The position numbers and the translations under genes are program-made. Below are positions 6,334 to 36,190 of a stretch of 36,209 bases of DNA, piece after piece (the first letter of the stretch is position 1; the number at the start of each line of letters is the position of its first letter). Source of the stretch: Clostridia bacterium (GTDB taxonomy: Bacteria > Bacillota > Clostridia > Oscillospirales > CAG-272); assembly GCA_017415485.1 (NCBI GenBank), contig JAFQGP010000060.1:1-36209 (forward strand). Reading direction: 5' to 3'. The notes under the pieces were generated by a model. It saw nothing but the letters and a program-made list of their open reading frames with translations. It did no database searches and was not told the origin of the DNA.

Positions 6334-6351
6334 TATTATGTCCTCCCAATA

Positions 6352-7960: not shown

Positions 7961-7966
7961 ATATAT

Positions 7967-7995
7967 ATTATATCTTTTTTAACTCACCTTGTAAA
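7967..7995 (-). promoter_or_regulatory. Sigma-A promoter for the AraC-corrinoid gene
   Basis: On the minus strand TTTACA (7990-7995), a 17-bp spacer and TATAAT (7967-7972). The predicted start near 7960 leaves a leader of about 70 nt, too short for a cobalamin riboswitch. It could drive the whole set from 7890 to 337. Confidence 0.65.
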
Positions 7996-8111
7996 TATGG
8001 TAAAATTTCTTTTCAATAAAAAATTGAAACAGAACCATATAAATACACCAATATACATATCGAAGAATAATCTCATAATTCCTACTTTAATAATACATTT
8101 CTCCTCTCAAA
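7996..8111. other. AT-rich spacer without a gene
   Basis: Strongly AT-rich compared with the flanks. It holds a weak inverted repeat, TTTCAAT/ATTGAAA (8011-8017 and 8023-8029, 5-nt loop), that might end transcripts from 10046. No coding frame is convincing. Confidence 0.45.
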
Positions 8112-8167
8112 AGGAACGCTGTCTGTATCCTTATAAGGATATTCATACAGCGTTCGCGTGTTGTCAT
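8112..8167 (-). pseudogene. Broken 5' end of a second UroD gene
   Basis: Beginning with ATG at 8167, five nt after the stop of the preceding UroD gene and behind a GAGG ribosome site, the minus strand reads MTTRERCMNIL, identical to the start of the intact UroD gene at 6333. A 4-base deletion then shifts the frame. With the gap corrected, the text continues as YKDTDSVP, a typical UroD N-terminus, before similarity stops. As it stands the frame ends after about 26 codons. The rest of the gene is absent and AT-rich DNA follows. This is best read as the scar of a rearrangement that placed the AraC-corrinoid segment here. Confidence 0.75.
8121..8167 (-). repeat. Direct repeat copy B (UroD remnant)
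   Basis: 47-bp counterpart of 6283-6333 in the same orientation, differing by two substitutions and a 4-base deletion. Confidence 0.8.
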
Positions 8168-8172
8168 GCCGT

Positions 8173-9399: not shown

Positions 9400-9413
9400 A
9401 GCTTCAGATGGCT

Positions 9414-21100: not shown

Positions 21101-22022
21101 TCCCGCAAGCGTGAGAGAGATCAACGGCAGTGAATTTAAGGATTGCGTATCTCTCACCGACTTCACCTTTGGCGGCACGGTTGCCGAGTGGAATGCGATT
21201 TTCAAGCAGTATTGGAAGGAAGGTGCGCCATTCAATACGGTGAAATGCTCGGACGGCACCGTGCGCGCGGATGAGGTCGATGAGTATGAAGCCATCGAGA
21301 TCGCGCGCGAATACTGGAAAGACATCATATCGGACGGCTGTTTTGTCAGCATAAAGCGTTACCCCACACATGAAGAGCCCTGCTTTACCGTCGTTCTTGC
21401 ACGCAAAAACGATGCGGGCAGATATCCGATAGAAACCGAGATCCTGATCGACCGCGCTACGGGCAATATCACGCATCCGGACTATTCCTATCCCGATATT
21501 CCCACGGCGATAATGGATGCGCTTATGAACAGAAGCACTCTCACTTTCACCAATCACGAGGGCACGAACGATGCGTATTTCAAGGATATCTTCCTTTGGG
21601 CGGACCATTTCGGTGCGACAACCGAGACCTTCTCCTATTCCGTATGCGATCTTGATTCGGACGGAGAGAAAGAGGTTATCCTTTTGACCGGCGGTAACAC
21701 CGTCATTCTCCGTGTATTTGGCGAAAAGGTCTACGGCAAAGAATACCCGAACAACGCCATCCCCGTGCTTTTCAGCGACGGAAGCTATACTTACTACGTA
21801 AATGCGGGAATTAAGGAATACACCTCGATGATAACCTTTGACGGAGCAGAGACCAAGAGCGTAACTATTCTGCTTCATGACCGCGGCAAGCAAAAGTATT
21901 ACGTTGAAGGCAGAGAGGTCACGCAGGCAGAATACAAAGCCCGCGAGGCACTTCTCTCAACAGAAAAGCTTGAATTTGAACCGCTCGATCTCTATCCGTT
22001 GGAAATTTATCCTCCAAATTAA
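18153..22022 (+). CDS. BspA-like LRR lipoprotein 1 with zinc-ribbon-like N-terminus
   Basis: 1289-aa surface lipoprotein. The signal peptide ends VFTG-Cys21; a Thr/Ser/Glu/Pro-rich stalk follows. Residues 61-112 hold a Cys/His cluster (Cys61, His63, Cys75, Cys86, Cys89, His102, Cys109, Cys112) that resembles paired zinc-ribbon half-sites. About 120-1040 is LRR_5/BspA repeat (units like AFSGCSSLE plus IP.GV..I) in three blocks. Each block opens with a GLEY-type beta unit and the first two close with a GT-x-EWN ... CSDG unit. About 1040-1289 has a PepSY-like segment (AIEIAREYW), an acidic DLDSDGEKEV calcium-like loop and a tail shared with the other LRR proteins here. BspA-type proteins generally bind host or matrix ligands. 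AAGGAG 6 nt before the ATG and the promoter fix the start; an upstream frame from 18072 overlaps the promoter. Confidence 0.9.
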   Translation: MKKINITLIMLLALVLVFTGCRGEGGEDTTAPPTITESPTVTTSPETSAEETTSVPETTECQHYSYVTEEITASCADAQAFANSHCIACGYSWSVPVTPPAHNYVDGVCKGCGNALWSLGLEFRTFADYAVVVGIGACEDSEVIIPATYNGLPVTEIWDRAFYQVKNMTSVTIPEGVTYIESEAFLNCPDLREIHLPASLENVTGSLSIGFMNCSALEFIEIAESNAKYYVADNCLIEKATGKLILAGGKTQHLAIGIKSIGAHAFSGNLLLKSLNIPEGVTDIHTSAFEGCTNLASITLPKTLKTIRQSAFKGCTVLTSIVIPDSVTEIYNAAFSDCKNLKNVTLSKNLTLIDSEAFKDCAIEGIEIPAGVKELGAAFSECEKLKSVTLPESFERFVGHTFAGCTELESINLPASLNHLGFFTFKNCAALKELNFGGTVSEWNAVYKQESWNDDAAFVSVNCSDGEVKLYADAADGGSAGLEYKIDGYGAMLVSIGNCTDKNIVIAPTFGGMAVTRIDASAFSGCDFIESVVIPDGVTIISDEAFYLCKNLKKVTLPSTLDIIGSWAFANCEKLEKIAIPNGIMIIEPRAFSDCVKLSSLTLGKELERIEENAFMNCSSLKSVTIPSKVIYFGNSAFSGCSSLEKATLTKGIEMIGDAVFADCPKLTAINFTGKIADWEKLVPSPRWMKGSSIERVICSDGDARLKDSFDGTPGLTYRIAKDGKSAFLAGIGVFSGSEIVVATEFNGLPVTSIAYRVINNAPNLTSIHISKTVTDLPKELFYQCDKILSLTVDPENPVYMSEGNCIIERKTGKLLYGCNGSVIPDGVNIIGESAFASCTSLTSLTVPEGVEVIEPRAFSVCTALSSITLPDSLVSVGEFAFSNSTSLESITFGSKVKTIDSSAFSGCTGLKKVDLPDTVTLGRSVFQNCSSLKSIKLPAAQTSLCGTFFGCSSLESVILPEKLTSLLGNTFSGCTSLGSITLPASVREINGSEFKDCVSLTDFTFGGTVAEWNAIFKQYWKEGAPFNTVKCSDGTVRADEVDEYEAIEIAREYWKDIISDGCFVSIKRYPTHEEPCFTVVLARKNDAGRYPIETEILIDRATGNITHPDYSYPDIPTAIMDALMNRSTLTFTNHEGTNDAYFKDIFLWADHFGATTETFSYSVCDLDSDGEKEVILLTGGNTVILRVFGEKVYGKEYPNNAIPVLFSDGSYTYYVNAGIKEYTSMITFDGAETKSVTILLHDRGKQKYYVEGREVTQAEYKAREALLSTEKLEFEPLDLYPLEIYPPN

Positions 22023-22125: not shown

Positions 22126-22231
22126 GTTTATAGATCAAAAAATTTTTCAACTTTTTTTCAAAACCCTGCAACCAAGTCCCGTTTTTTGGTTACTTGTTAA
22201 GTGAAGGGACTTCACGAAAGGAGGCGAACTT

Positions 22232-22789
22232 ATGACAGACGAAAGAATCATTGAGATGCTTTTTAATCGCGATGAGGCGGCGCTTGGCGAGATCGAGAAG
22301 AAATATTCGGCTTTTTGCCACACGGTGGCGGCGAATATTCTTGCCATCCGTGAGGATCGCGAGGAGTGCGTCAACGACGTGCTGCTTGCGCTCTGGAACG
22401 CCATTCCGCCCGAGCGTCCCGAAAGTCTGAAAGCGTACATTTCAAGAATAGTTCGCAATATTGCATACAACAAAACGAGGGCAATGGGCACCTGGAAGAG
22501 ATGCGCGAGCTTTTTGACGGTGGGGGACGAGTTCCTTGAGACCATTCCCGACACCGCGGACCTCGCCGAGCAATTCGAGGCTTCGCGCGCGGGCGAGATC
22601 ATCAACGATTTTCTCGCTTCTCTTCCCGCGCACGAGCGCCAGGTCTTTGTTCTTCGCTATTATTTCGGCGAGAGCGTCAACAACGTTGCCGAGGATATGG
22701 ATTTCTCGGTCAGCAAGGTCAAGTCGCTTTTGATGCGCACGCGCCAGCGTCTTGCGCAGAGGCTCGGAAAGGAGGGGATCATCGTATGA
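22232..22789 (+). CDS. ECF-type RNA polymerase sigma factor 1
   Basis: 185-aa group 4 sigma factor. The region-2 core spans about 20-85 (EDREECVNDVLLALWNAIPP, then LKAYISRIVRNIA), and region 4 spans about 125-180 (LPAHERQVFVLRYYFGESV, then VAEDMDFSVSKVKSLLMRTR). It would direct RNA polymerase to a small set of promoters and is expected to be held by a membrane partner. It overlaps the next gene by four bases (ATGA), the usual layout for sigma/anti-sigma pairs. An AGGAGG site precedes the ATG. It is about 66% identical to the second sigma factor at 34116 by hand count. The sigma-A-like promoter upstream does not itself show autoregulation. Confidence 0.93.
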   Translation: MTDERIIEMLFNRDEAALGEIEKKYSAFCHTVAANILAIREDREECVNDVLLALWNAIPPERPESLKAYISRIVRNIAYNKTRAMGTWKRCASFLTVGDEFLETIPDTADLAEQFEASRAGEIINDFLASLPAHERQVFVLRYYFGESVNNVAEDMDFSVSKVKSLLMRTRQRLAQRLGKEGIIV

Positions 22790-25700
22790 AACGGGAGAAG
22801 AATTACAAAACCGCAAGGCTGATCGAGGCACTTGAATACATCGACGTCCGCTTCATCGAGGAAGCCGCCGAGAAGATCAAGCCCCGCCCGACGGGTCAGG
22901 CGTTTTACGGCAAGCCGAGCCGCAGCAAGGCTCTGCGCCAGTTCCTCGCGCTTGCAGCCTGCGTGCTGCTTCTGAGCGCCGCCATCCCCGCAATAACCTA
23001 TCTTGCGAACCATCTGCCAGACATCGTCGCATTCTTCATCGGCGACGAAACCACCGGCACCGACCCCGAACTGACCCACCCCGAGACCCCGCCGACCGAA
23101 ACGTCGCGAGCTCCCGAGACCACGGTCAACACCGACCCCGAAACCACCGCTCCCCTCTACGACGGCACGACCGCCGAGCCCGAACCCGAGCACAACGGAA
23201 GCTATGGCCTTGAATACAAGATGAACGAGGACGGAAAGAGCGCGATGCTCTTCCATCGCGGAATATGCACGGATGAAAACGTCATCGTCGCCTCTGTCTG
23301 GAACGGCGTACCCGTAACTATCATAGGCGAAGCCGCATTTGCCGATTATATCAAATATAAGACCATAACGATTCCTGAAAGCGTAACGGCGATAGATATG
23401 CGCGCCTTCAAGAACTGCACGGGGCTTGAAAGTGTCGTGCTTCACGACGGCATCTCTTACATCGGCGCAGACGCCTTTGAGAACTGTGTTTCGCTTACGG
23501 AGATCACCCTCCCGAAGTCGCTCGAATGGATCCAGACCGGACTTTTTGCGAATTGCATCAATCTCCAAAAGGTTATTATCGGAAACGAAGTCGAAAGAAT
23601 CGTTTTTGGTGCCTTTTACGATTGTTCCGCTCTGCGCGAGCTCCATTACCTCGGCACAAAGGCAGAATGGAACAAGATCCAAAAGGACTTGGATTGGAAT
23701 GCAAAGAGCGCGATTACCGTAGTCCATTGCTCCAACGGCGATGTTGAAATTACACCTTATAATGCCGATGAACCCGAATACGACGGCTCGCGCGGGCTTG
23801 AGTATAAGGTAAACAACGATGGTAAAACCGCCTCGCTTTTCGGGATCGGAACCTGTACCGATACCGAGATCGTTGTCGCTTCCACCTATAACAGTTTACC
23901 CGTTACGGAAATATTCTACAATGCTTTCAACGGTAATTCGCAGATAGTCAGCGTTATCATACCCGAGAGCGTTACCTTTATAGAAGAACGCGCATTCGCA
24001 AACTGCAGTTCTCTCCAAAGAATAACGCTCCCCTCCGGCTTAAAAAATTTCGGCGAAGCTGAAACCTTCAAAAACTGCACCTCTCTCAAAACCATTGTTC
24101 TGCCCGACGGTATGAATTATCTCGGCGTAGAGACCTTCAAGGGTTGCACTTCTCTTGAAAGTATTGTTATGAAGGGGGTCGGAAGCATCGATATAAGTGC
24201 TTTTGAAGATTGTACCAAACTTAACAATATAGTTATTTCCGGAAAATGCATAGAAATATCGCATTCCGCCTTCAAGAATTGCAGCTCGCTTACAAATTTT
24301 TCATTTGACGGTACTGTAAACGAGTGGTTGAAGCTTGCCAAAGAAGATGAATGGAGCGAAGGCTGCCCCTTCACCGTCATCCATTGCTCCGACGGTGACG
24401 TTGATCTGATCGAATACGACGGCAGTGTTGGACTTGAATACAGCATCGGCGGCAATGCCGAAATAGGTCGGTATATGACTCTTGACGGTATCGGAACCTG
24501 CACAGATGTCGACATTGTTGTTGCTTCATATTACAAGGGCTATCCCGTCAAGTATATCGAGCAAGGTGCTTTTTACGGGCAGACTCAAATAAAAAGTATA
24601 AGGCTCTCTGACACCGTGGAGAGAATCGACTCCCAAGCTTTCCGCAATTGCACCTCTCTTGAAAGTATATATATCGGATCAGGCTTCAGAGAATTCAATA
24701 GCAATGCTTTCTGGGGCTGCGGTAATATTTCTAAAATAGAGATCGATCCCGACAACAAGTTTTTTGAGGGAGTTAACTGCATTATTGAAAAAAGCAGAAA
24801 AGCACTCGTTCGCGGTTGCAGAACCACCGTTATTCCCGCCGACGGAAGCGTCACACGTATCGACGGTCTTGCATTTATCGATGTTCACGGTTTGACCTCT
24901 ATCACTATTCCCGAAGGAGTTACTTCCCTCGGAGAAGATGCCTTCAGCGGCTGCCCCGATCTCAAGAGCATACATTTTTCAAGCACTGTAAACTCTTTTG
25001 AGCTTGTTTCCGTAATGGGCTGCGATGCTCTTGAAGTCATAACGGTAGACTCGAAGAATCCGAGGTTCTATTCATCGGGCAACTGCGTTATAGAAAAAGA
25101 GACCGGCACGCTCTTCCTCGGATGCGGAGGGAGCGTGATCCCGAATGACGGAAGCATCAAAAAGATCGGTTATTATGCGTTCGGAAGTAACGATTCGCTT
25201 ACCAATATTGTGATACCCAATGGTGTAACGCATATAGACGGCTATGCATTTGCGGGCTGCGCGGGCTTAAAGGAGATCATCCTCCCTGACAGTGTTACAC
25301 GGGTTGGATTCGGCGTTTTCAGCGGTTGTTCGAGCCTTGAAAGATTCGAATTCAGTGAAAACACAAAGACGATAGGAAGCTGGGTGTTTGATAACTGCGT
25401 AAATCTGCGCGAAGTGAAAATGCCCAAGTACGGAAGCATCGGCGAGGGCGTTTTCAGCGGTTGTTCGAACCTTGAAAGCATCGTCATTCCGATCGGTCAG
25501 GATATTCTCCACATAGGAACATTCTCTGCGTGTATTAATCTTAAATCCGTCGTTCTTCCTGACACGCTGACACAGATACACAGTCCTTTCCCCGACTGTA
25601 CCTCGCTCAAAAGCATAACGATCCCCGCAGGTGTAACTATCATAGAAAATCAGGCATTTATTGGCTGCACCTCTCTTACTGAGTTCAATTTCAAGGGCAC

Positions 25701-28700
25701 CGCTTCGGAATGGAAGAAGGTAACGAAAGAAAACGGCTGGAATCGCGGCTGTCCCTTCACCGTCATCCATTGCTCCGACGGCGATGTCGATCTGATCGAA
25801 TACGACGGCTCGCGCGGGCTTGAATACCGAATTGAGGGCGATCACGCCGTGCTTGTCGGCATTGGTACTTGCACCGATAAGGATATTGTAACTGCAACGA
25901 CCTATAACGGTCTGCCCGTTACCGGAATCGACAGCTTTGAAATATCCGGCAACAAGGGGATAACCTCAGTCACTGTCTCCGAGGGTGTTACTCATATTGA
26001 AGTGTGTGCATTTTCAGGTTGCCCCGATCTTCGCGCCGTCTATCTGCCGAGTACGCTTCAATTTTTGTCCGCGGGCGAAGGAATTGCATTTGAAAACTGT
26101 GATAATATCGATACAATAAAGGTAGCTGACAGTAATCCGAAATACTATTCTGTCGGGAACTGTCTGATCGAAAGAGGAACAGGCAATCTTGTTTTGGCGT
26201 GCTCAAAGAGTGTTCTGCCGTCCGACGGAAGCATAAAGAGTATAGGTCAATTTGCTTTCGGAGGCAGTGATTCGCTTGAGAAAATTGTTATTCCGGAAGG
26301 AGTCACAGTAATTAATCCTTATGCTTTTGCCGGATGCGCTTCGCTCAAAAGCGTGACATTCCCCGACAGCTTAACTACCGTCAAGTGGGATGCGTTTGCA
26401 AATTGCACCTCGCTTGAATCGGTCAAGCTTGGCGATAACGTGACAGAGATCGGAAGCCGTGTATTCAGTGGCTGTTCGAGTCTTGTTGACATTACCCTTC
26501 CGGGGCGCGTGGATTCCTTCGGCGAGGAGATATTCGCGGGATGTCCTATCGAAAGCATTGTCATCCCCGACGGGGTAAAGACCCTTCACGGCGGAATGTT
26601 TGCTAATTGCCGAAAGCTCAAAAGCGTAACACTTCCCAATGGAATTGAAACAATAGTCGGCTTTGCTTTCGCTTATTGTTCGTCTCTCGAAAAAATAACG
26701 CTCCCCCGCAGTGTAACGAAGATACAAGGCGAAGTTTTTGCAGATTGCTCAAACCTTACCGAGTTCACCTTCAAAGGCACAAAGGCGGAATGGAACGCTA
26801 TAGAGAAACAGGACGGATGGAACGACGGCTGTCCCTTCACCGTCATCCATTGCTCCGACGGTGATCTTGAGCTCTACGAATACGACGGCTCGCGCGGGCT
26901 TGAATACCGAATTGAGGGCGATCACGCCGTGCTTGTGGGCATTGGTACTTGCACCGACAAAGAGATCATCGTCGCTTCTACCTATAACGGTCTGCCCGTT
27001 ACGGCAATCGGACGCAAAGCTATTTATTCGCTTGACGGCATAACGCGCGTCGTCATATCCGATACCGTAACCCATCTCGATTATATGGCTATCGCGTGGT
27101 GTTCCGATCTCGAATCGATCCATATTCCTGCCAATCTGACGACTATGGAAGAGTACGCGATCATTGCATTCGGCAATATTCGCAGCATTACCGTTGACCC
27201 GAACAATCCGAACTATTACAGCGTGAATAATTGCCTTATAAACAGAGAAACGAAAACACTCATTCTCGGCTGTGATACAAGCATTATCCCAACCGACGGA
27301 AGCATCAGCGCCATAGCGCCTAAAGCTTTTACGATGTGTGACGGCATTGAAAGTATCACTATCCCCGAGGGTGTAACAAAAATCGGAGAGGATGCCTTTT
27401 ATGATTGCTCGGCGCTCAAAAGCATTGAGCTTCCCGAAAGTCTGATTACAATAGATTCGAGCGCTTTCGCAAACTGCTCGTCGCTCCAAAATGTAAAGCT
27501 CGGCGGTAAAGTCGAGTATATGGGCGATTACGTTTTTTCCGAATGTGTGAAATTGGGCGAGATAATACTCCCCGACAGCCTGAGCTTTCTCGGAAATTAT
27601 GCTTTTCAGTGTTGTACCGATCTAAAGCGTGCAGTTCTGTCGAGCAATCTGGAAATACTCGAGCTGATGATTTTCGCATCCTGCACGAATCTTGAAGACG
27701 TTATCATCCCCGAGGGTGTGAAAATCATTAGCACCGATGCTTTTTCAAACACTGCGCTGAAGGAACTAAAACTGCCCGCGAGCATCAAAGAGATACGGCA
27801 GGGGGCGTTTGAATATTGCGACAATCTTATGAATGTAAGCTATGCGGGAACTGTTGCCCAATGGATCGCCGTAGAAAAGGACATCGGTTGGCACACAGTC
27901 GGCACATTCAAAAAGATTAGTTGCTCGGACGGCGAGATGAAGCTCTACTCAGATTCCAAGGATGAAGGCAGCCTCGGACTTGAATATGAGATCAACACGG
28001 ACGGCAAGAGCGCACGATTGATTGGCGAAGGTATCTGTACCGATGCCAAAATAGTAGTTGCGGCAAAATTCCACGGCCTGCCGGTGACCGAGATATATTC
28101 GGTTGCTCTGTCGAACTGCGACTTTATCGAGGAGATCGTAATTCCCGAGGGCGTAACGGTTATCCGCAACCAAGCCTTCTACCGTTGCGTAAATCTGAAA
28201 AAAATAACCTTGCCGAGCACGCTGGAATATATCTACGATTCCGCTTTTGCCGATTGCGAGAGTCTTGTAAGCATAGTCATCCCAAGAGAAGTAAAGCTTA
28301 TTGAGACTTGGGCGTTTCGGGATTGCAAAAATCTCACGAAGTTTACCTTTGCGGGTACAGTCGCTGAATGGAACGCCGTTCAGAAAGGTTTGGGCAACAA
28401 TTGGAACGAAGGCTGCCCCTTCACCGTCATCCATTGCTCCGACGGAGATGTTTTAGCGGAGCCGATGTCCTATGACGAGGCTACCGAGCTTGCGCGTCAG
28501 TATTGGTCGCCGATAGAAAGCGGATATTTCGTCTGCTATGCAAGCTACGAAATGTATCTCCTCGTTCGTCCCGATGAAGTGATCGTGGACAGGATCTACA
28601 TTGACCGCTACACGGGCGAGATCTCGCAGCCCAAGCTGACATATCCCGACATACCCGATCCACTTCTCAAGGTTCTTCTCAACGAAACGACCTATATCCG

Positions 28701-29178
28701 CCAATTTGATTCCGAATCGGAAGGGTATTTCAAGGATACCGTCCTTGATTACCCGACCGCGGAGACAGGCTCTTTCGGCTACGCCGTCTGCGATCTTGAC
28801 GGAGACGGAAAGGAAGAGCTTATCCTTTCCTCGATGCAATATGAGATCGTTCTGCGCGAATTTGAGGGCAAGGTTTACGGATATTTGTTCGACTTCAGAT
28901 CTTTGCTTGATCTCAAAACCGACGGAAGCTTCAATTTCACCTCGAACGCGGGAATGACTTACGGCACGGCAAGGCTGAGTTTTGACGGCACAAAATACGT
29001 TTTCACCGAATTGACCCGAAGAGAACTTGTCGATAACGGAAGCATATCCTACTTTGTTGACGACAAAAAGGTCACAAAAGAGGAATTTGACGCCCGCGAG
29101 GCACTTCTTTCGCAAGAAGAAGCACCTTACGAGCACCTTGCGATCTATCCCCTCAGGGCTTGGTTCCCCGGAGGATAA
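22786..29178 (+). CDS. Giant single-pass membrane protein with BspA-like LRR ectodomain (putative anti-sigma/sensor)
   Basis: 2130 aa with no cleavable signal. Residues 1-50 are cytoplasmic and carry RLIEALEYID, FIEEAA and IKPR, motifs shared with the partner of sigma factor 2. One membrane helix follows (about 52-74), then a Thr/Pro/Glu-rich stalk (85-135). About 140-1890 is LRR_5/BspA repeat in six blocks, each opening with GLEY/IGTCTD/YNGLPV units and most ending GT-x-EW ... GCPFTVIHCSDGD. The C-terminal part (about 1890-2130) has a PepSY-like segment, DLDGDGKEEL and the shared tail. The four-base overlap with an ECF sigma gene and the cytoplasmic motif suggest an anti-sigma factor whose sensor is the LRR array; this is inference. 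No zinc-finger anti-sigma motif or sortase signal is present. Blocks four and five are nearly identical in part at DNA level. Confidence 0.88.
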   Translation: MKREKNYKTARLIEALEYIDVRFIEEAAEKIKPRPTGQAFYGKPSRSKALRQFLALAACVLLLSAAIPAITYLANHLPDIVAFFIGDETTGTDPELTHPETPPTETSRAPETTVNTDPETTAPLYDGTTAEPEPEHNGSYGLEYKMNEDGKSAMLFHRGICTDENVIVASVWNGVPVTIIGEAAFADYIKYKTITIPESVTAIDMRAFKNCTGLESVVLHDGISYIGADAFENCVSLTEITLPKSLEWIQTGLFANCINLQKVIIGNEVERIVFGAFYDCSALRELHYLGTKAEWNKIQKDLDWNAKSAITVVHCSNGDVEITPYNADEPEYDGSRGLEYKVNNDGKTASLFGIGTCTDTEIVVASTYNSLPVTEIFYNAFNGNSQIVSVIIPESVTFIEERAFANCSSLQRITLPSGLKNFGEAETFKNCTSLKTIVLPDGMNYLGVETFKGCTSLESIVMKGVGSIDISAFEDCTKLNNIVISGKCIEISHSAFKNCSSLTNFSFDGTVNEWLKLAKEDEWSEGCPFTVIHCSDGDVDLIEYDGSVGLEYSIGGNAEIGRYMTLDGIGTCTDVDIVVASYYKGYPVKYIEQGAFYGQTQIKSIRLSDTVERIDSQAFRNCTSLESIYIGSGFREFNSNAFWGCGNISKIEIDPDNKFFEGVNCIIEKSRKALVRGCRTTVIPADGSVTRIDGLAFIDVHGLTSITIPEGVTSLGEDAFSGCPDLKSIHFSSTVNSFELVSVMGCDALEVITVDSKNPRFYSSGNCVIEKETGTLFLGCGGSVIPNDGSIKKIGYYAFGSNDSLTNIVIPNGVTHIDGYAFAGCAGLKEIILPDSVTRVGFGVFSGCSSLERFEFSENTKTIGSWVFDNCVNLREVKMPKYGSIGEGVFSGCSNLESIVIPIGQDILHIGTFSACINLKSVVLPDTLTQIHSPFPDCTSLKSITIPAGVTIIENQAFIGCTSLTEFNFKGTASEWKKVTKENGWNRGCPFTVIHCSDGDVDLIEYDGSRGLEYRIEGDHAVLVGIGTCTDKDIVTATTYNGLPVTGIDSFEISGNKGITSVTVSEGVTHIEVCAFSGCPDLRAVYLPSTLQFLSAGEGIAFENCDNIDTIKVADSNPKYYSVGNCLIERGTGNLVLACSKSVLPSDGSIKSIGQFAFGGSDSLEKIVIPEGVTVINPYAFAGCASLKSVTFPDSLTTVKWDAFANCTSLESVKLGDNVTEIGSRVFSGCSSLVDITLPGRVDSFGEEIFAGCPIESIVIPDGVKTLHGGMFANCRKLKSVTLPNGIETIVGFAFAYCSSLEKITLPRSVTKIQGEVFADCSNLTEFTFKGTKAEWNAIEKQDGWNDGCPFTVIHCSDGDLELYEYDGSRGLEYRIEGDHAVLVGIGTCTDKEIIVASTYNGLPVTAIGRKAIYSLDGITRVVISDTVTHLDYMAIAWCSDLESIHIPANLTTMEEYAIIAFGNIRSITVDPNNPNYYSVNNCLINRETKTLILGCDTSIIPTDGSISAIAPKAFTMCDGIESITIPEGVTKIGEDAFYDCSALKSIELPESLITIDSSAFANCSSLQNVKLGGKVEYMGDYVFSECVKLGEIILPDSLSFLGNYAFQCCTDLKRAVLSSNLEILELMIFASCTNLEDVIIPEGVKIISTDAFSNTALKELKLPASIKEIRQGAFEYCDNLMNVSYAGTVAQWIAVEKDIGWHTVGTFKKISCSDGEMKLYSDSKDEGSLGLEYEINTDGKSARLIGEGICTDAKIVVAAKFHGLPVTEIYSVALSNCDFIEEIVIPEGVTVIRNQAFYRCVNLKKITLPSTLEYIYDSAFADCESLVSIVIPREVKLIETWAFRDCKNLTKFTFAGTVAEWNAVQKGLGNNWNEGCPFTVIHCSDGDVLAEPMSYDEATELARQYWSPIESGYFVCYASYEMYLLVRPDEVIVDRIYIDRYTGEISQPKLTYPDIPDPLLKVLLNETTYIRQFDSESEGYFKDTVLDYPTAETGSFGYAVCDLDGDGKEELILSSMQYEIVLREFEGKVYGYLFDFRSLLDLKTDGSFNFTSNAGMTYGTARLSFDGTKYVFTELTRRELVDNGSISYFVDDKKVTKEEFDAREALLSQEEAPYEHLAIYPLRAWFPGG
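25747..25863 (+). repeat. Long direct repeat inside the giant LRR gene (copy 1)
   Basis: Nearly identical to 26827-26943 at an offset of exactly 1080 bp (360 codons). It includes a perfect 35-bp stretch (25747-25781) and a perfect stretch of about 59 bp (25798-25856). It marks the junction between LRR blocks. Confidence 0.85.
26827..26943 (+). repeat. Long direct repeat inside the giant LRR gene (copy 2)
   Basis: Second copy of the block junction; a single C/G change separates the copies over the tract of about 60 bp ending at 26938. Confidence 0.85.
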
Positions 29179-29182
29179 AGCA

Positions 29183-29221
29183 AACTTCCCGAACCGTTTT
29201 TTACGGTTCGGGAAGTTTTTT
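29183..29221 (+). terminator. Rho-independent terminator after the giant LRR gene
   Basis: 15-bp stem (29183-29197 with 29203-29217), T-rich loop, followed by TTTT: a textbook intrinsic terminator that closes the first sigma operon. Confidence 0.9.
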
Positions 29222-29249
29222 CGCATTATTATGTTCACAGAAAAAATTA

Positions 29250-29278
29250 TTGACAACGAAAAAATAATATGATATACT
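29250..29278 (+). promoter_or_regulatory. Promoter for the second LRR lipoprotein
   Basis: TTGACA (29250-29255), 17-bp spacer, TATACT (29273-29278). Confidence 0.78.
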
Positions 29279-29288
29279 TAAATCGAGA

Positions 29289-29305
29289 GGAAGGCTGATG
29301 CTTCC
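29289..29305 (+). promoter_or_regulatory. 5'-terminal leader hairpin (copy 2)
   Basis: GGAAG (29289-29293) pairs with CTTCC (29301-29305) around GCTGATG. It matches copy 1 (18109-18129) in loop and in distance from the promoter. Confidence 0.45.
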
Positions 29306-29353
29306 CCGAAGAATATCGAAGTTCACACCTACCATTCGCAAAAGGAGTTTTTA

Positions 29354-32300
29354 ATGAAAAAAATAAACATTACTTTAGTTATGCTGCTCGCGCTTGTGCT
29401 TGTATTTACAGGCTGTCGCGGCGATGGCGGCGAGGACACGACAGCTCCTCTGACCGTCACCGAATCCCCGGCGGTAACAACTTCGCCCGAAACTACTGCC
29501 GAAGAAACCACTTCCGCGCCCGAAACAACCGCGGAGGAAACAACAGCAGAGGAAACAACCGCAGAGGAAACGACCGCTCCGGTCGAAGATGTTTACGACG
29601 GCTCACGCGGGCTCGAATATTGGGTCATCGGAACCGGATACAGGGTGCGTCTTGTCAGCATTGGCACCTGCACCGACACCGACGTCGTTGTGGCATCGAC
29701 CTATAACGGTGCGCCGGTTACCGAGATCAGCGCGGGAGCTTTCGCGGGCGGCGAGAAGATCGAATCGATCACGCTGTCCGACAGCATCACCACAATTCCC
29801 GCCGGAGCTTTTGCGGGTTGCACCAATCTGAAAAAGCTTGTCATCGGCGCGGGCGTGAATAATTTCAGTCCCTCTGTTCTCAAAGATTGCCCTTCACTTG
29901 AGAGCATTGAGGTCTCACCCGAAAACGCGAACTATTCTGCCGTGAACGGCTGTATCATCAACAAACACACCAAAACCTTGGTCTATGCGACCGAATCGGC
30001 ACAGATCCCGAGCGACGGCAGCGTTGAGACCATAGCCGCGGGGGCTATTGCAAACCACAAAAATCTCACCTCGCTCGTCATCCCCGAGGGGGTCAAGACG
30101 ATCAAAGCGGGCGCGATCGCGAATTGCCCCGAGCTCCAAACCGTTGCTCTGCCCGCAAGCCTTGAGACCTTCGAGGAAGGCGCGCTGGTCGGATGCCCCA
30201 AGCTTTCCTCCCTCTCTACCAAAGATGACGGCAACTACGTCGTCAAGGGCAACTGCCTTGTCAGCATTCCGCTCAAGCGGCTGATCCTCGGATTCTCCAC
30301 AAGCGTCATCCCCGACGATCTTGGGATCGTGTATATTGGAAAATCCGCCTTTGAGGGCTCGGGAATAACGTCGGTCAGCATCCCCGATTCTGTCACGACC
30401 ATCGAGGAATCGGCTTTCCGAAACTGTACCGCACTCAAGAGCGTAACCCTCCCCGACAGTCTGACAACGATCTCGGATTACGCCTTCTATGAATGCTCCG
30501 CGCTCGAGGCGGTCGAATTCCTGCGTAATGTGAAGACTATCGGAAAATATGCCTTCACGGGATGCACTTCTCTCACGTCTTTAAGGGTCGGAAGCTATAT
30601 CAAATCTGTCGAAGAGGCGGCGTTTAAGGACTGCACTTCGATCAAGACTCTAATTATCGACAAGTATTCGAGCTGGAGTAATTCCGATATATATTTTGGC
30701 AAATCCGTATTTGAGGGCTGCACCGCGCTTGAGAGCGTTGAGATCTCCGATAGCGGACTGATCACCTATGGCGAAGCTGCTTTCAAGAACTGCACAAGCC
30801 TCAAGAGCTTCAGGCATGTCAGAACCTATTATTACGTCCCTGCGGAAATGTTTTACGGCTGCACGAGCCTTGAAGAGGTTGAATTCTCCGACAATCTTTC
30901 CGAGATACGCAACAATGCCTTTTACGGTTGCACGTCTCTGGGGAGCGTGACCGTCGGCGAGTCGCTCCAAAAGATTCAGGATAACGCCTTTTACGGCTGC
31001 CGTTCTCTTGGAGAGTTCGTCTACCTTGGCGTCTCCGGTGATTGGCAGGGCATCACGAAATCTGCAAATTGGCGCGATGGGGCTCTCTTCACCGACGTCA
31101 AATGCTCCGACAAAACTATCGGCGTCAATGATCCTCTGAATCACAACGGCGCGCCCGGACTCGTCCACGTTATGAACGCTGACGGCAATTCCGCAACTCT
31201 CACCGACCTTGGCAAATGGTGGTTTTCAAACGGTGCAAAATTTGCCGATACCTATAACGGCGTGCCCGTCACACACATTGCGCCCGACGTTTTCAAGGGC
31301 AGAGTTAATGTGGTGCAAAAAATAACATTGCCGCAGAGTCTTGTCGAGATCTGCGAGGGGCAGTTCATATACTGCAATCGCCTCTCAAGCGTGACCATCC
31401 CCGCAACCGTTAAAGAGATCGGCGCGGATGCTTTCCGCGGCTGTTTAGAGCTTGAAACGGTGACTTTCAAAGGCACACGCGAACAGTGGAAGCAAATCAA
31501 GCTGGGCGAAAACTGGAATATCGGCTGTAATTTTACCACAGTTACCTGCTCCGACGGCACCTTGACCGTAGACTTGCCCGCAGAAGCAAACGACGGCACA
31601 CCCGGTCTGTATTACAGCATATCCAATGACGGCTATGCATACCTGAGGGCTATGGATCAGAATTGCACCGAAACAGAAATCAGAATCGCAACGGAATACA
31701 GGGGATACAAGGTGACCCGCATATATGAACGCGCGCTTCAGTACAATACACAGATCAAGAGCGTTATAATCCCCGAAGGAATAACCTCTATCGGAGACTA
31801 CGCCTTCTACGGTTGTTCGTCGCTTAAGAGCGTCAAGCTGCCAAAGTCTTTGCTCAGCATAGGCGAATATGCATTTGCGGCTTGCCCCGAATTCAAGAGC
31901 ATTTCACTGCCCGATGGACTTACGACTCTTATCGGCAACGCCTTCTACGGCACCCCCATAAAGGAACTCTATATTCCCAAGAACGTGACCGATATCGGCT
32001 GGATCGAATGCGAAACTCTCGCGACCCTCGAGATCCACCCCGACAATCCGAGATACAGATTTGTTGGCAATTGCTACATCGACAAAGAAACAAAAACGCT
32101 CCTGCAGGTCTTCGGCAAACCCACCTTCCCGACCGACGGAAGCATCGAGACCTTCGGTGAGGGCGTGCTTTGGGGCAACGAGGAGATCACCGAGCTGATC
32201 ATCCCCGAGGGCGTTACCCATCTTTGGAATAACGCAATAGGCGACAATCCAAATCTCAAAAAGCTCCATATCCCGAGCACGCTTGTCGAGATCTATTCTC

Positions 32301-33901
32301 CGATCGAATCCTATTTCGATCTCAGAAATCTTGAAAAGATAACCGTTGCAGCCGGTAACGAGCGTTATTATGCCAAGGATAACTGCCTTATTGAGAAGGA
32401 CACCGGCTTGCTGATGATGGTCAACAAGTACGGCAAGATACCGACTGACGGAAGCATCAAGAGCATAGGCGAAGGCGCTTTCGCGGCATTCAAGGATCTC
32501 AAGTCGATCGTTATTCCCGAGGGAGTTGTCAGCATAGAAGAGGGTGCTTTCAGCGGTTGTTCCTCTCTTGAGAGTGTAAGCTTCCCCGAAAGTCTTGAGA
32601 GCATCGGCTCACGTGCGTTTAGCGGATGTACCGCGCTGAAGAAAATTGATATCGGCGATAACGTCAAGCACTTCGGAACCGAAGTCTTTGTGGGATGCAC
32701 CGCGCTCGAAGAGGTCAGCCTGCCCAAAGAGGTCGAATATTGGACTTGGGGTATTTTCGACTCCTGCACGAGCCTCAAACGCATCGTTGTACCTTACGGA
32801 GTTAAAGACTTTGACATCCGCAGATGCACAAGCCTTACCGAGGTCGTGCTCCCCGAGACCGTGACACACGCAGCTTTTAACGGTTGCACAAGCTTGCGCA
32901 CCGTCATCCTGCCCGAAAGTATGAGGAGTATGTACGATATGTTCTTCGGCTGCACAGGACTCGAAGAGATCGTTCTTCCCGCGGGCTTGACCGTGATCTA
33001 TTCCGAGGCATTCTACGATTGCACCTCGCTCAAAAAGGTCACCATCGAGGGCGACATCACCGAGATCGGCGCCGAGGCTTTCCGTAATTGCATCTCTCTT
33101 GAAACCATCACGCTTCCCGCATCCGTGAAATCGATCAAGTCGGACGCTTTCAAAGGCTGTACCGCGCTTCGCGAGATCGTCTTTGAGGGAAGTAAGGCAG
33201 AGTGGGCAAAGATCTCGAAGGGTGCAAACTGGGATACCGACACCGCGCTTGCCGTGATCCGTTGCTCGGACGGCAATATCACCGCGGACGCTCAGCCCGA
33301 GGATTATTCCGATATGTCAAAGATCCCCGAGCCGCTCAGAGACGTGCTTCTCGGCAAAGCGACCTTCCGCTACGCGGGCAAGGGCGTGGATATTCTGCTT
33401 GAAGATATCGAAACCTCTTGGGAAAAGGGTATACTCAAGGAGAAGGATAACGTTGCTTACGCAGTCCTTGATATGGACGGCGACGGAAAGCTTGAGGTCG
33501 TGGTGTCAACTTATTTTACCGATACCTACTATGATTCCAATTACGGCGACAAGATCATCCTCCGCGAGGAGGGCGGCGTTGTTTACGGCTACCATTTCGG
33601 CGGCAGCTCGCTCCATAAAGGTGATTATATGGAAGATATCAAGGCTGACGGCTCGTTTATATGGTGTATCGATACTCCGATGAGATATGATTGCTACGCA
33701 ACCATCCGCTTCTCCGGCGAAAATTACACGATCGTGACGCATTGCAAATATAGTATATCGGGAGCGGACGCCGAATATGATATTGCAGGCAAAAAGGTCA
33801 CCCGAGAGGAGTTCAACGAGTACACCAAGCGTTTTGACAAAGATCACGTCATCTGGTACCACCTCGACCGCTACCCGCTTGAAAATTCGACGAAAAATTA
33901 A
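29354..33901 (+). CDS. BspA-like LRR lipoprotein 2
   Basis: 1515-aa surface lipoprotein whose first 21 residues differ from LRR lipoprotein 1 at one position; Cys21 is the lipidation site in VFTGC. The stalk contains a short ETTAE tandem repeat. Residues about 95-1310 are LRR_5/BspA repeats in three blocks opening SRGLEYW, APGLVHV and TPGLYYS, with linker units carrying a DG-x-ETF or EGV-x-L turn. The C-terminal part (about 1310-1515) lacks the PepSY-like segment of its relatives but keeps an acidic DMDGDGKLEVV loop and the VTREEF ... YPL tail. AAAGGAG lies 7 nt before the ATG. It probably acts as a surface adhesin or ligand-binding protein; a functional link to the flanking sigma operons is suggested by position and shared domains only. 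Confidence 0.9.
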   Translation: MKKINITLVMLLALVLVFTGCRGDGGEDTTAPLTVTESPAVTTSPETTAEETTSAPETTAEETTAEETTAEETTAPVEDVYDGSRGLEYWVIGTGYRVRLVSIGTCTDTDVVVASTYNGAPVTEISAGAFAGGEKIESITLSDSITTIPAGAFAGCTNLKKLVIGAGVNNFSPSVLKDCPSLESIEVSPENANYSAVNGCIINKHTKTLVYATESAQIPSDGSVETIAAGAIANHKNLTSLVIPEGVKTIKAGAIANCPELQTVALPASLETFEEGALVGCPKLSSLSTKDDGNYVVKGNCLVSIPLKRLILGFSTSVIPDDLGIVYIGKSAFEGSGITSVSIPDSVTTIEESAFRNCTALKSVTLPDSLTTISDYAFYECSALEAVEFLRNVKTIGKYAFTGCTSLTSLRVGSYIKSVEEAAFKDCTSIKTLIIDKYSSWSNSDIYFGKSVFEGCTALESVEISDSGLITYGEAAFKNCTSLKSFRHVRTYYYVPAEMFYGCTSLEEVEFSDNLSEIRNNAFYGCTSLGSVTVGESLQKIQDNAFYGCRSLGEFVYLGVSGDWQGITKSANWRDGALFTDVKCSDKTIGVNDPLNHNGAPGLVHVMNADGNSATLTDLGKWWFSNGAKFADTYNGVPVTHIAPDVFKGRVNVVQKITLPQSLVEICEGQFIYCNRLSSVTIPATVKEIGADAFRGCLELETVTFKGTREQWKQIKLGENWNIGCNFTTVTCSDGTLTVDLPAEANDGTPGLYYSISNDGYAYLRAMDQNCTETEIRIATEYRGYKVTRIYERALQYNTQIKSVIIPEGITSIGDYAFYGCSSLKSVKLPKSLLSIGEYAFAACPEFKSISLPDGLTTLIGNAFYGTPIKELYIPKNVTDIGWIECETLATLEIHPDNPRYRFVGNCYIDKETKTLLQVFGKPTFPTDGSIETFGEGVLWGNEEITELIIPEGVTHLWNNAIGDNPNLKKLHIPSTLVEIYSPIESYFDLRNLEKITVAAGNERYYAKDNCLIEKDTGLLMMVNKYGKIPTDGSIKSIGEGAFAAFKDLKSIVIPEGVVSIEEGAFSGCSSLESVSFPESLESIGSRAFSGCTALKKIDIGDNVKHFGTEVFVGCTALEEVSLPKEVEYWTWGIFDSCTSLKRIVVPYGVKDFDIRRCTSLTEVVLPETVTHAAFNGCTSLRTVILPESMRSMYDMFFGCTGLEEIVLPAGLTVIYSEAFYDCTSLKKVTIEGDITEIGAEAFRNCISLETITLPASVKSIKSDAFKGCTALREIVFEGSKAEWAKISKGANWDTDTALAVIRCSDGNITADAQPEDYSDMSKIPEPLRDVLLGKATFRYAGKGVDILLEDIETSWEKGILKEKDNVAYAVLDMDGDGKLEVVVSTYFTDTYYDSNYGDKIILREEGGVVYGYHFGGSSLHKGDYMEDIKADGSFIWCIDTPMRYDCYATIRFSGENYTIVTHCKYSISGADAEYDIAGKKVTREEFNEYTKRFDKDHVIWYHLDRYPLENSTKN
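29522..29578 (+). repeat. 15-bp tandem repeat in the lipoprotein stalk
   Basis: Three full units of GAAACAACCGCAGAG-type sequence plus a partial fourth encode repeated ETTAE. LRR lipoprotein 1 has only one such unit at the same place, so the tract has expanded or contracted in whole codons. Confidence 0.8.
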
Positions 33902-33909
33902 ATAATTCT

Positions 33910-33931
33910 CCCGCAGGCTTTTGCCTGCGGG
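33910..33931 (+). terminator. Terminator after LRR lipoprotein 2
   Basis: CCCGCAGGC and GCCTGCGGG form a perfect 9-bp stem with a TTTT loop, followed by ACTTCTTTA. It sits only 9 bp before the -35 box of the next promoter. Confidence 0.75.
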
Positions 33932-33940
33932 ACTTCTTTA

Positions 33941-33969
33941 TTGACAAACTCAAATAAATATGCTATTAT
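33941..33969 (+). promoter_or_regulatory. Promoter of the second ECF sigma operon
   Basis: TTGACA (33941-33946), 17-bp spacer, extended TGC-TATTAT (33964-33969). Confidence 0.75.
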
Positions 33970-33980
33970 ATTTGTGAATC

Positions 33981-34010
33981 TGCACAAAATGGGTTGGGTC
34001 AATTTGTGCA
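33981..34010 (+). promoter_or_regulatory. Inverted repeat in the sigma factor 2 leader
   Basis: TGCACAAA (33981-33988) and TTTGTGCA (34003-34010) are perfectly complementary across 14 nt; another TTTGTG stands at 33971-33976. It lies near the predicted transcript start and could be an operator or a leader stem-loop. Confidence 0.45.
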
Positions 34011-34115
34011 AATCTACAAAGTTCCGGAAAATACCGAAATATATGAAACCAAAATGCCCCGAGGTGGTACTTGATAGATGAAGGGACCCTTTGAAAACTG
34101 ACAGGAGGTGAGCGT

Positions 34116-34673
34116 ATGAATGACGAGAAGATAATTGAGATGCTTTTTGAGCGTGACGAGGGTGCTTTGCGCGGGGTGGAGCAGAAATACGGCGCATTTT
34201 GTCACACGGTGGCGGCGAATATTCTTTCCCTGCGCGAGGACCGCGAGGAATGCCTCAACGATCTGCTTTTGGCGCTCTGGAACGCCATTCCGCCCGAAAG
34301 ACCGCAATGTCTGAAGGCTTATATCGCCAAGATCGTCCGCAATCTCGCCATGAAGAAAACGCGATCCGAGAACGTATGGCGGCGCTCGAAGAGCTTTGCC
34401 GAGATCGGCGAGGATTTTCTCGAATCGATCCCCGATTCCTTTGACCTGTGCGACCAATTCGAGTCGGCGCGCGCAGGCGAGATCCTCAATGAGCTCCTTG
34501 AAAGCCTGCCCGAGCACGAGCGCGACGTGTTTGTGTTGCACCACTATTTCGGCGAAAAGGTCGCGCACGTTGCCGCCGATATGGGATTCAGCGAGGGAAA
34601 GGTGAAAACTATCCTTTTCCGAACACGCCGAAAACTTGCAGAAAAACTGCAAAAGGAGGGTATTTTGGTATGA
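34116..34673 (+). CDS. ECF-type RNA polymerase sigma factor 2
   Basis: 185 aa, the same length as sigma factor 1 and about 66% identical to it. Region 2 (EDREECLNDLLLALWNAIPP; LKAYIAKIVRNLA) is the most conserved part. Region 4 (LPEHERDVFVLHHYFGEKV; VAADMGFSEGKVKTILFRTR) has changes in the recognition helix (SEGKVKTIL versus SVSKVKSLL), so promoter choice may differ. AGGAGG lies about 7 nt before the ATG, and a TGAAGGGA leader element is shared with the first sigma operon. It overlaps the following gene by four bases (ATGA), indicating coupled expression with its membrane partner. Confidence 0.93.
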   Translation: MNDEKIIEMLFERDEGALRGVEQKYGAFCHTVAANILSLREDREECLNDLLLALWNAIPPERPQCLKAYIAKIVRNLAMKKTRSENVWRRSKSFAEIGEDFLESIPDSFDLCDQFESARAGEILNELLESLPEHERDVFVLHHYFGEKVAHVAADMGFSEGKVKTILFRTRRKLAEKLQKEGILV

Positions 34674-36190
34674 AAAACAAAAACGATAAGCGGCTGATCT
34701 CCGCGTTCGAGCACATCGACGACAAATTTATCGAATCCGCCGCAAAAAGGATCAAGCCGCGCACCGAGGGAGTCGCAGAGCGCGGCGCGAACAAGATGAA
34801 AATGATCAAGCAGGTCGCTCTGCTTGCCGCGTGCCTCGTTCTTCTCGGCGCGGCTGTCCCGCTCGCGGGAAGGCTCGTCGGGCTCATCCCCGAGCTCTTC
34901 AACCCCGCGGCCACCGAGAACGAATCGAACGTTCTTGAAACAAACGAAAACGATCCGCCCAAGATCGATGATCTCCCCGAGGAATATTTTACGGCAGGAG
35001 ACGGATTTTTGTCCTATCCCTCCTACTACCTCGGAGTTGAATACGACGGGTGCTGGATTCACAAATCGAGGGCATACAAGGATTTTGAGGGCGGATTATA
35101 CGATTACTTCCCATATCTATACAAGTACGACCCCGTGGCAAAGACAAGCACAAGCATTTGCATCAAGCCTTCCTGCAAGCACACGGACGAAAGCTGCCCC
35201 GTTTTCGTGCCCGCAGGGTGGAATATTGACTCCATCACCGTTTTTGATGATTGGTGCTTGTATCAATGTACGAAAGCTGTTGCTATCGAATTCAACGACG
35301 AGACTCAGGTGCGCCTTTACAATATGAAGACCGGCGAGGCGCGTGTGATCGCGGAAAAGAGCCAAGCTGATAGTCCCCACTCGACGCCCAAATCCGCCTT
35401 TGCTATGGATGGAAAGGTATATTTGAGTGTATCGGATGTGTCATGGGATACGGGTCTGATTTCGAGGCAGATCCGCAATTACATTGTCTGCTACGATCCC
35501 GCGACGGACACGGCAGATAGGTTGTGCGATTTCCCTGCAAAGATGTATCTTGTCGGCATGACCAACAAACGCTTCTTCTTCAGCGAAGATCCGTTCATTG
35601 AGATACATTATAATTCTGAGATCTGGGCCTGCGACTATTCGGGCGAGAATTACAGAAAAATGGCGAACTTCAATTTTGTTCCCATGTACGTCTGCGGAAC
35701 GCTTGCATACGGCGTGGGAGAAAACAACACCGTGCTTGCTTACGATCTCGCGACAGATTCGGCTTCAACGATCGATTTCGGCAATATCCAGTACGTCTAT
35801 CTGGATTCGGAGGAACTCGGATTCACCACGACTTCGCGCATTGAGGAATACAACAAGTACCTCGCAGATCAGGATGCCTATATTGCATGGAACTATCCGG
35901 GCGTGACCGACCCCGACAAGATCTCGAAGTTCAAAGCCGAAACCGAGATCAAGCTGAATTGCAAGGTGGATATGCAATTCTACCTCACCGATTCGCGCGG
36001 CGGGAACCAAACCCTTGTTTTCGAAGGCGAAAACATCAACTTTAAGCCTTACCGCCGTGTGGGTGACCATATCATCGGTTCTTTGATAAAGGCTTCGAAA
36101 TACGAGGTGTATATTCTCGACAGCGGTTTTGCCGCCCTCAACCTCAAAACCGGCGAGTTCGAAATGATCCCCAGATTAAAATTTGACTAA
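34670..36190 (+). CDS. Single-pass membrane protein with propeller-like ectodomain (putative anti-sigma/sensor)
   Basis: 506 aa. The N-terminal RLISAFEHID, FIESAA and IKPR match the cytoplasmic tail of the giant LRR protein at 22786. A membrane helix (about 47-70) and a short linker follow. The ectodomain (about 90-506) has repeated beta units with aromatic and Tyr-Asp motifs (YLYKYDPVAKTS, YNMKTGEARVI, VCYDPATDTAD, LAYDLATDSAS, LNLKTGEFEM) and a CIKPSCKHTDESCP cysteine motif seen in clostridial DUF5050/propeller-like proteins. It is the likely partner of sigma factor 2; an anti-sigma role is inferred from the shared tail, the ATGA overlap and topology. The gene ends inside the window; no terminator is visible in the last 19 bases. 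Confidence 0.85.
   Translation: MKNKNDKRLISAFEHIDDKFIESAAKRIKPRTEGVAERGANKMKMIKQVALLAACLVLLGAAVPLAGRLVGLIPELFNPAATENESNVLETNENDPPKIDDLPEEYFTAGDGFLSYPSYYLGVEYDGCWIHKSRAYKDFEGGLYDYFPYLYKYDPVAKTSTSICIKPSCKHTDESCPVFVPAGWNIDSITVFDDWCLYQCTKAVAIEFNDETQVRLYNMKTGEARVIAEKSQADSPHSTPKSAFAMDGKVYLSVSDVSWDTGLISRQIRNYIVCYDPATDTADRLCDFPAKMYLVGMTNKRFFFSEDPFIEIHYNSEIWACDYSGENYRKMANFNFVPMYVCGTLAYGVGENNTVLAYDLATDSASTIDFGNIQYVYLDSEELGFTTTSRIEEYNKYLADQDAYIAWNYPGVTDPDKISKFKAETEIKLNCKVDMQFYLTDSRGGNQTLVFEGENINFKPYRRVGDHIIGSLIKASKYEVYILDSGFAALNLKTGEFEMIPRLKFD

What the first reader, a model, noticed from the sequence alone, without database searches (positions are those of the whole stretch)
22232..36190. Two paralogous ECF sigma/membrane-sensor pairs with swapped ectodomains, one a giant LRR array
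Sigma factors 1 and 2 are about 66% identical and each overlaps its partner by ATGA. The partners share only a cytoplasmic tail (RLI-x-A-x-E-x-ID, FIE-x-AA, IKPR) and a membrane helix. Outside the membrane one carries about 1750 residues of BspA LRRs and the other a propeller-like domain. This is the pattern of a modular sigma/anti-sigma family in which a short anti-sigma tail is joined to interchangeable sensors. A 2130-aa LRR anti-sigma partner is not something I know to be described.
Basis: partly seen in the sequence, partly recalled or inferred. Interest (0 to 1): 0.8.

Follow-up and report, generated by a model that had tools for sequence, protein, structure and literature searches.

The report
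Modular sigma/anti-sigma family with swapped ectodomains
The two gene pairs belong to a large, so far unlabelled family in gut Clostridia in which a short cytoplasmic tail that grips an ECF sigma factor is joined across the membrane to very different outside domains (leucine-rich-repeat arrays, propellers, protease-trapping serpins and macroglobulins), so one bacterium carries nearly thirty separate surface-to-gene switches.

Summary
Observation confirmed, interpretation supported and extended. The window (G000:C45) holds two ECF sigma genes (66% identical), each overlapping by ATGA a membrane protein with the same N-terminal tail and helix but unrelated ectodomains: 2130 aa with a BspA-type LRR array, and 506 aa, beta-rich; 'propeller' is unproven. 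The genome carries 28 such tails, all right behind sigma genes; in three sister genomes 66 of 66 are. Sampled with the tail alone across Clostridia, 190 of 199 tails follow an ECF sigma gene. Of 346 pairs, 319 share the 4-base overlap. Ectodomains include LRR, PF09826 propeller, Ig, serpin and alpha-2-macroglobulin. Pfam, NCBIfam and the PDB hold no model of the tail. Sigma operons carry an ECF-type promoter, and a conserved Ala-Ala in the membrane helix suits intramembrane proteolysis. Inhibition and signals are inferred. A new variant of a known kind, with an anti-sigma domain apparently unnamed; the main ECF classification paper was not available.

The parts
22157..22205 (+). putative self-regulated ECF-type promoter of sigma 1: TGCAAC, then a -10-like GGTTACT, then the conserved box AGTGAAGGGAC
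   Evidence: Family profile TGNAAC-N16-CGTCT plus GTGAARGG from 210 of 246 upstream regions; model R1 hit G000:C45:22168-22217, E 5e-5 (the model was partly built from this site)
22232..22789 (+). ECF sigma factor 1 (185 aa)
   Evidence: AlphaFold model pLDDT 83 with the sigma2-sigma4 layout
22786..29178 (+). membrane partner 1 (2130 aa), putative anti-sigma factor with a BspA-type LRR ectodomain
22786..22887 (+). cytoplasmic tail of partner 1 (residues 1-34; sigma-coupled residues 10-28)
   Evidence: tail family alignments; couplings to sigma
22933..23001 (+). membrane helix of partner 1 (about residues 50-72) with the family's near-invariant Ala-Ala (residues 57-58)
   Evidence: AA at these two columns in 88% of 346 partners
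23203..28455 (+). LRR array of partner 1 (about residues 140-1890), ~360-residue cassettes
   Evidence: PF13306 in 13 stretches; cassette comparison
28456..29175 (+). C-terminal domain of partner 1 shared with the neighbouring LRR lipoproteins
   Evidence: 38% identity over 263 residues with lipoprotein A, 32% over 188 with lipoprotein B
34037..34086 (+). putative self-regulated ECF-type promoter of sigma 2: TGAAACC, then GGTACTTG, then GATGAAGGGAC
   Evidence: hit G000:C45:34043-34092, E 0.009
34116..34673 (+). ECF sigma factor 2 (185 aa)
34670..36190 (+). membrane partner 2 (506 aa), same tail and helix, ectodomain of unknown fold (beta-rich)
18153..22022 (+). neighbouring LRR lipoprotein A (1289 aa from the internal ATG), no tail; sigma-A-like promoter; context, not a proven part
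29354..33901 (+). neighbouring LRR lipoprotein B (1515 aa), no tail; sigma-A-like promoter; context, not a proven part

Best explanation
[quoted passage not shown] The first ~28 residues of the partner (two short helices, L..A...IDD..I.EA) dock on the first two helices of sigma4, with a few contacts to the last helix of sigma2, and so would keep the sigma factor off RNA polymerase. One membrane helix links this clamp to an exchangeable outside domain: an LRR array in pair 1, a beta-rich domain in pair 2, and serpin, macroglobulin, PF09826 propeller or Ig domains in paralogues and relatives. An outside event (ligand binding, cleavage or loss of the ectodomain) would trigger cleavage in or near the membrane, degradation of the tail from the exposed Ala-Ala, and release of sigma, which transcribes its own operon from an ECF promoter. 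Shown by sequence: pairing, shared tail, residue-level co-variation, promoter motif, varied ectodomains, Ala-Ala conservation. Inferred: inhibition, proteolytic release, the signals, the targets beyond the sigma operons.
For: 28 of 28 tails in this genome follow an ECF sigma gene; 66/66 in three other genomes; 190/199 in tail-first sampling. 319 of 346 pairs overlap by four bases. Coupling analysis: top inter-protein scores 3.8 against a largest shuffled value of 1.32 (346 pairs, Neff 314); sigma residues 120,121,125,129 and 133,136,137,140,141 lie on two consecutive sigma4 helices (112-130, 133-144 in the model) at helical spacing; 67, 72, 83 on a sigma2 helix; 101 in the linker helix. In the 248-pair set, giving each sigma the tail of one of its 3 nearest sigma relatives drops the top score from 3.17 to 1.09, and leaving out the window's genus keeps the same top pairs. 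Couplings learned from the other pairs match 21 of 27 sigma genes of this genome to their own tails; trained without the sister genomes, mean rank 7.8 of 27, none of 10,000 permutations as good. Ectodomain variety. ECF-type promoter upstream of 210 of 246 sigma genes (about 40 in shuffled DNA). Ala-Ala in 88% of tails at one position of the helix, M50 protease loci in the genome, and ClpXP recognising XAA sites in the membrane helices of RsgI anti-sigma factors (PMC12203970). One locus has sigma and tail in a single open frame (L366).
Against: No experiment shows inhibition; co-variation shows contact, not its sign, and a co-activating tail is not excluded. Six tails with room upstream have no separate sigma gene (in L366 it is fused; L258 and L259 carry serpins). 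Blind matching within the sister-genome expansions is weak when trained only on outsiders (mean rank 16.3 of 37), so cross-talk there is possible. No PrsW-type site-1 protease was found; the genome is 87% complete. Sigma-A-like promoters also precede several sigma genes, including sigma 1.
Confidence: 0.85

Rival explanations
1. The tail is a co-factor ('pro-sigma') that the sigma factor needs for activity, as described for FecR-like proteins, rather than an inhibitor; the ectodomain signal would then switch the tail from idle to helper.
For: Coupling shows contact but not its sign. That FecR N-termini can promote sigma activity is from general knowledge, not tested here.
Against: The contacts fall on sigma4 helices, with some on sigma2, the two domains that known anti-sigma factors of three classes contact (PMC7406223), which fits blocking better; there is no TonB receptor or other FecA-like third gene in the window.
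Confidence: 0.1
2. The membrane proteins are mainly surface effectors (adhesins, protease traps) and the tail is only a feedback device that keeps their own amount constant; there is no outside ligand to sense.
For: 24 of the 26 best matches of the promoter-plus-box model in this genome lie upstream of the family's own sigma genes; serpins keep an inhibitory-type hinge (for example EGTEAAAAT in L132), and macroglobulin ectodomains have bait-region matches.
Against: The promoter model was built from sigma promoters and includes the box, so targets lacking the box would be missed; two other sites were found (C18:32579 before a lipid kinase, C109:109367 before a lipoprotein). It does not exclude sensing.
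Confidence: 0.25
3. The pairing is only operon hitch-hiking: sigma and membrane gene are co-transcribed and duplicated together but do not touch.
For: Shared duplication alone would give matching gene trees.
Against: Near-neighbour tail swaps, which largely keep the tree signal, abolish the couplings; couplings are confined to tail columns 4-22, with none in the linker and membrane columns of the same proteins; sigma positions form consecutive helical faces.
Confidence: 0.03

Closest known systems
SigI/RsgI of Clostridium thermocellum
   Same: Several paralogous sigma/anti-sigma pairs in one genome, short N-terminal cytoplasmic domain, one membrane helix, exchangeable outside sensors, self-regulated operons (PMC6056542, PMC12203970)
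   Different: SigI is not an ECF sigma factor; the tails here gave no RsgI match in Pfam; known RsgI ectodomains are carbohydrate modules and enzymes, here LRR, serpin, macroglobulin, propeller and others; up to 28 pairs per genome
ECF30 SigV/RsiV and other DUF4179 anti-sigma factors of Firmicutes
   Same: ECF sigma with a membrane anti-sigma factor, outside sensor, regulated proteolysis (PMC6066255)
   Different: DUF4179 reaches E<0.001 in only 6 of 183 partners tallied; where its position was listed (weak own-genome hits) it covers the membrane/juxtamembrane stretch, not the tail; most ectodomains are unrelated to RsiV
Class II anti-sigma domain (CnrY)
   Same: Short cytoplasmic segment with two helices touching sigma4 and sigma2 (described in PMC7406223)
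   Different: No sequence match to any PDB chain above background, CnrY included; here both helices couple mainly to sigma4
Class I anti-sigma domain (zf-HC2/RseA/RsiW type)
   Same: Cytoplasmic clamp, membrane helix, ECF partner; contacts to sigma2 and sigma4
   Different: About 100 residues and often zinc-binding; the tail is ~30-50 residues without a zinc motif. This genome has one conventional zf-HC2 pair (L053) that is distinct

Membership tests
ECF sigma factors (Group IV) | sigma2 and sigma4 only, no sigma3 or region 1.1 | tested here: met
   Pfam/NCBIfam matches and the model's helices
ECF/membrane anti-sigma pair (general kind) | Co-transcribed membrane protein with a cytoplasmic segment that contacts sigma | tested here: met
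   ATGA overlap in 319/346 pairs; residue couplings. Contact is computed, not measured
ECF/membrane anti-sigma pair (general kind) | The segment inhibits sigma until a signal arrives | not testable with these tools
   Needs genetics or biochemistry
ECF/membrane anti-sigma pair (general kind) | Sigma transcribes its own operon | tested here: inconclusive
   ECF-type motif upstream of most sigma genes; not shown that the cognate sigma uses it
Class I anti-sigma (ASDI) | Anti-sigma domain of ~100 residues, often with the zinc motif | tested here: not met
   Tail ~30-50 residues, no zf-HC2 match in the 28 family partners or the 183 tallied partners
Class II anti-sigma (CnrY type) | Short two-helix domain, helix 1 on sigma4 and helix 2 on sigma2 | tested here: inconclusive
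   Length fits; two helices only in a low-confidence model; no sequence match in the PDB; couplings put both helices mainly on sigma4 with fewer to sigma2
SigI/RsgI | SigI-type sigma factor and RsgI N-terminal domain | tested here: not met
   Sigma matches ECF models, and no RsgI match to the partners
DUF4179 (RsiV-like) | PF13786 above its cut-off | tested here: not met
   Absent from both window partners; below cut-off in own-genome hits; E<0.001 in 6 of 183 others

The most novel reading that the evidence does not exclude
Pair 1 would be the LRR version of the same principle (loss or occupancy of a surface array reporting on itself).
Probability: 0.2. Interest if true: 0.9.

Novelty: new variant of a known kind. 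Interest (0 to 1): 0.7.

Why it matters
The family was found in 218 of 394 sampled genomes of the window's order, 83 of 391 of the class and 27 of 398 of the phylum, yet Pfam, NCBIfam and the PDB have no model of the tail and partners in cultured gut strains are annotated 'hypothetical protein'. If right, many unannotated surface proteins of gut Clostridia can be recognised as sensors from ~30 residues, paired with a sigma factor, and their regulons made testable. Serpin and macroglobulin ectodomains suggest that these bacteria monitor proteases through anti-sigma factors, for which I found no report in the library searched. The expansion to ~28 pairs in one genome, with a computed specificity interface, is also a natural set for studying insulation between paralogous signalling pairs.

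Tried and rejected
An unpaired alignment of sigma and tail rows with MAFFT put all tails on the wrong half. AlphaFold of partner 2 alone: pLDDT 40, useless for the propeller question; profile comparison of its ectodomain with the PF09826 paralogues: no match. A broad sigma alignment (A3) was too diverse for the pattern search; a subset (A4) worked. Idea that the LRR lipoproteins next door are sigma 1 targets: their upstream DNA shows TTGACA/TATAAT-type promoters and not the ECF motif, so rejected as direct box-bearing targets. PrsW as site-1 protease: not found. Chance explanation of the shared tail: rejected. The large ECF re-classification paper (PMC7826278) is not held, so the ECF group number could not be assigned.
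Full report
What is there. The window is contig C45 of a 2.69-Mb assembly (87% complete). Sigma 1 (22232-22789) and sigma 2 (34116-34673) are ECF sigma factors, 66% identical over 185 residues, and each stop codon overlaps the start of a membrane protein by ATGA. The two membrane proteins share only their first ~75 residues: a tail with RLI.A.E.ID..FIE.AA..IKPR, a basic stretch and a hydrophobic helix. Beyond it partner 1 is a BspA-type LRR protein (13 LRR_5 stretches) made of ~360-residue cassettes 30-50% alike, ending in a domain it shares with the LRR lipoproteins on either side.

A family, not a pair. Searching the genome with sigma 1 gave 32 matches, of which about 28 are close paralogues (34-66% identical) and two are distant ECF-like matches. 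Nearly all are followed, mostly with the ATGA overlap, by a membrane protein with the same tail. A tail profile finds 28 tails in the genome, all behind these sigma genes; the next match (E 0.003) covers only the membrane helix. The profile was built from these tails, so independent tests were run: in three sister genomes all 66 listed tails lie behind a sigma gene. In loci fetched because of the tail alone, from samples of the class, order and phylum, 190 of 199 have an ECF gene directly upstream; three of the nine exceptions are at contig ends, one is a sigma-tail fusion in one frame (which may be a sequence error), and two carry serpins without an adjacent sigma gene. Of 346 non-redundant pairs 319 overlap by exactly four bases. 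The family was found in 218 of 394 genomes of the order, 83 of 391 of the class and 27 of 398 of the phylum (thresholds 1e-5, 1e-4 and 1e-5). Named relatives are mostly uncultured ruminant- and other gut-derived Clostridia; cultured carriers include Lachnospira eligens, Monoglobus pectinilyticus and Vescimonas fastidiosa, where the partner is annotated 'hypothetical protein'.

Ectodomains. Among the partners in this genome: LRR_5 in six, Beta_propel (PF09826) in four, a serpin in one, no family in most. Among 183 others tallied: serpin 8, LRR_5 6, Beta_propel 4, DUF4179 6, Ig-like Big_14 3, and single DUFs; most have no match. Eleven serpin partners are found among the 346 pairs by sequence; several keep an inhibitory-type hinge such as EGTEAAAAT. 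Giant partners elsewhere are LRR arrays (1216-1602 aa), alpha-2-macroglobulins with bait-region matches (1734-1808 aa, five genomes, fetched because of their length; no clear thioester motif), or without a family. So a giant LRR partner is part of a recurrent pattern.

Does the tail touch sigma? With 248 pairs the top couplings of the joint alignment were between sigma4 and the tail motif. With 346 pairs (Neff 314) 18 inter-protein couplings exceed the largest value of 20 shuffles (3.79 against 1.32); all lie in tail columns 4-22 and none in the linker or membrane helix, which serves as an internal control. Sigma positions 120, 121, 125, 129 and 133, 136, 137, 140, 141 (then 145, 146) follow helical spacing on the two first helices of sigma4 in the AlphaFold model (pLDDT 83); 101 is in the linker and 67, 72, 83 in a sigma2 helix. 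Relatedness is the main worry with such statistics: in the 248-pair set, replacing each tail by that of one of the three nearest sigma relatives (mean identity to the nearest sigma neighbour 64%) brought the top score down to shuffle level, and leaving out the window's genus kept the same top pairs. Couplings matched 21 of 27 sigma genes of this genome to their tails when sister genomes were in training, where orthologues help; without them the mean rank was 7.8 of 27, still better than all 10,000 permutations; for the sister-genome pairs trained on outsiders only the result was weak.

How it most likely works. The contacts are on the sigma domains that anti-sigma factors of other classes use (PMC7406223), so blocking of RNA polymerase is the simplest reading; the sign is inferred. 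Upstream of 210 of 246 sigma genes there is an ECF-type promoter, TGNAAC-N16-CGTCT, followed by a conserved GTGAARGG box near the expected transcription start (about 40 in shuffled DNA). In this genome 24 of the 26 best matches to a model of it lie upstream of the family's sigma genes (the model was built partly from them), which points to self-regulation, with a lipid-kinase gene and a lipoprotein as further candidates. The LRR lipoproteins beside pair 1 have sigma-A-like promoters instead. Release by intramembrane proteolysis is suggested by an Ala-Ala at one position of the membrane helix in 88% of partners, the most conserved residues of the aligned region, by M50 proteases in the genome, and by the published use of XAA sites in RsgI membrane helices by ClpXP (PMC12203970); no PrsW homologue was found.

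Comparison with the known. In layout it works like SigI/RsgI of C. thermocellum (paralogous pairs with exchangeable sensors), but the sigma factor is an ECF and the tail is not RsgI. It is not class I (too short, no zinc motif), and not DUF4179. It resembles class II (CnrY) in size, but no sequence link was found. Searches for papers combining anti-sigma factors with LRR/BspA, serpin or macroglobulin in the held library gave nothing relevant; the main ECF classification paper is not held, so an existing ECF group may already contain these sigma factors. I therefore call it a new variant of a known kind, with an apparently unnamed anti-sigma domain.

Noticed in passing
upstream of the family's sigma genes, e.g. 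window 22180-22205 and 34060-34086: A GTGAARGG box just after the ECF -10 element, at about the expected transcription start and 24-45 nt before the start codon, is the most conserved part of the upstream region; its role is unknown.
   Followed up: partly
window 6352-7890 (-): A 512-aa protein joins an AraC-type regulator (residues 29-290) to an MtgC/MtbC-like corrinoid domain (306-507), inside a corrinoid methyltransferase cluster (2173-10046); it could be a regulator that reads the corrinoid state.
   Followed up: no
L258 and L259: Tail plus serpin ectodomain without an ECF sigma gene next to it; L259 appears split by a frameshift.
   Followed up: partly
L366:946-2382: Sigma factor and tail with ectodomain in one open frame, a natural fusion or a sequence error.
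   Followed up: partly
L319 (G000:C18:32579-32630): The same promoter-plus-box motif stands before a diacylglycerol/lipid-kinase-like gene, a candidate target outside the sigma operons.
   Followed up: partly
L443-L447: Alpha-2-macroglobulin-like giant partners (1734-1808 aa) behind ECF sigma genes in five genomes, two of them in the window's genus.
   Followed up: partly
genus of the window (G000-G012): Copy number varies from 0 to 28 tails between species of one genus at the threshold used, so the expansion is recent or unstable.
   Followed up: no
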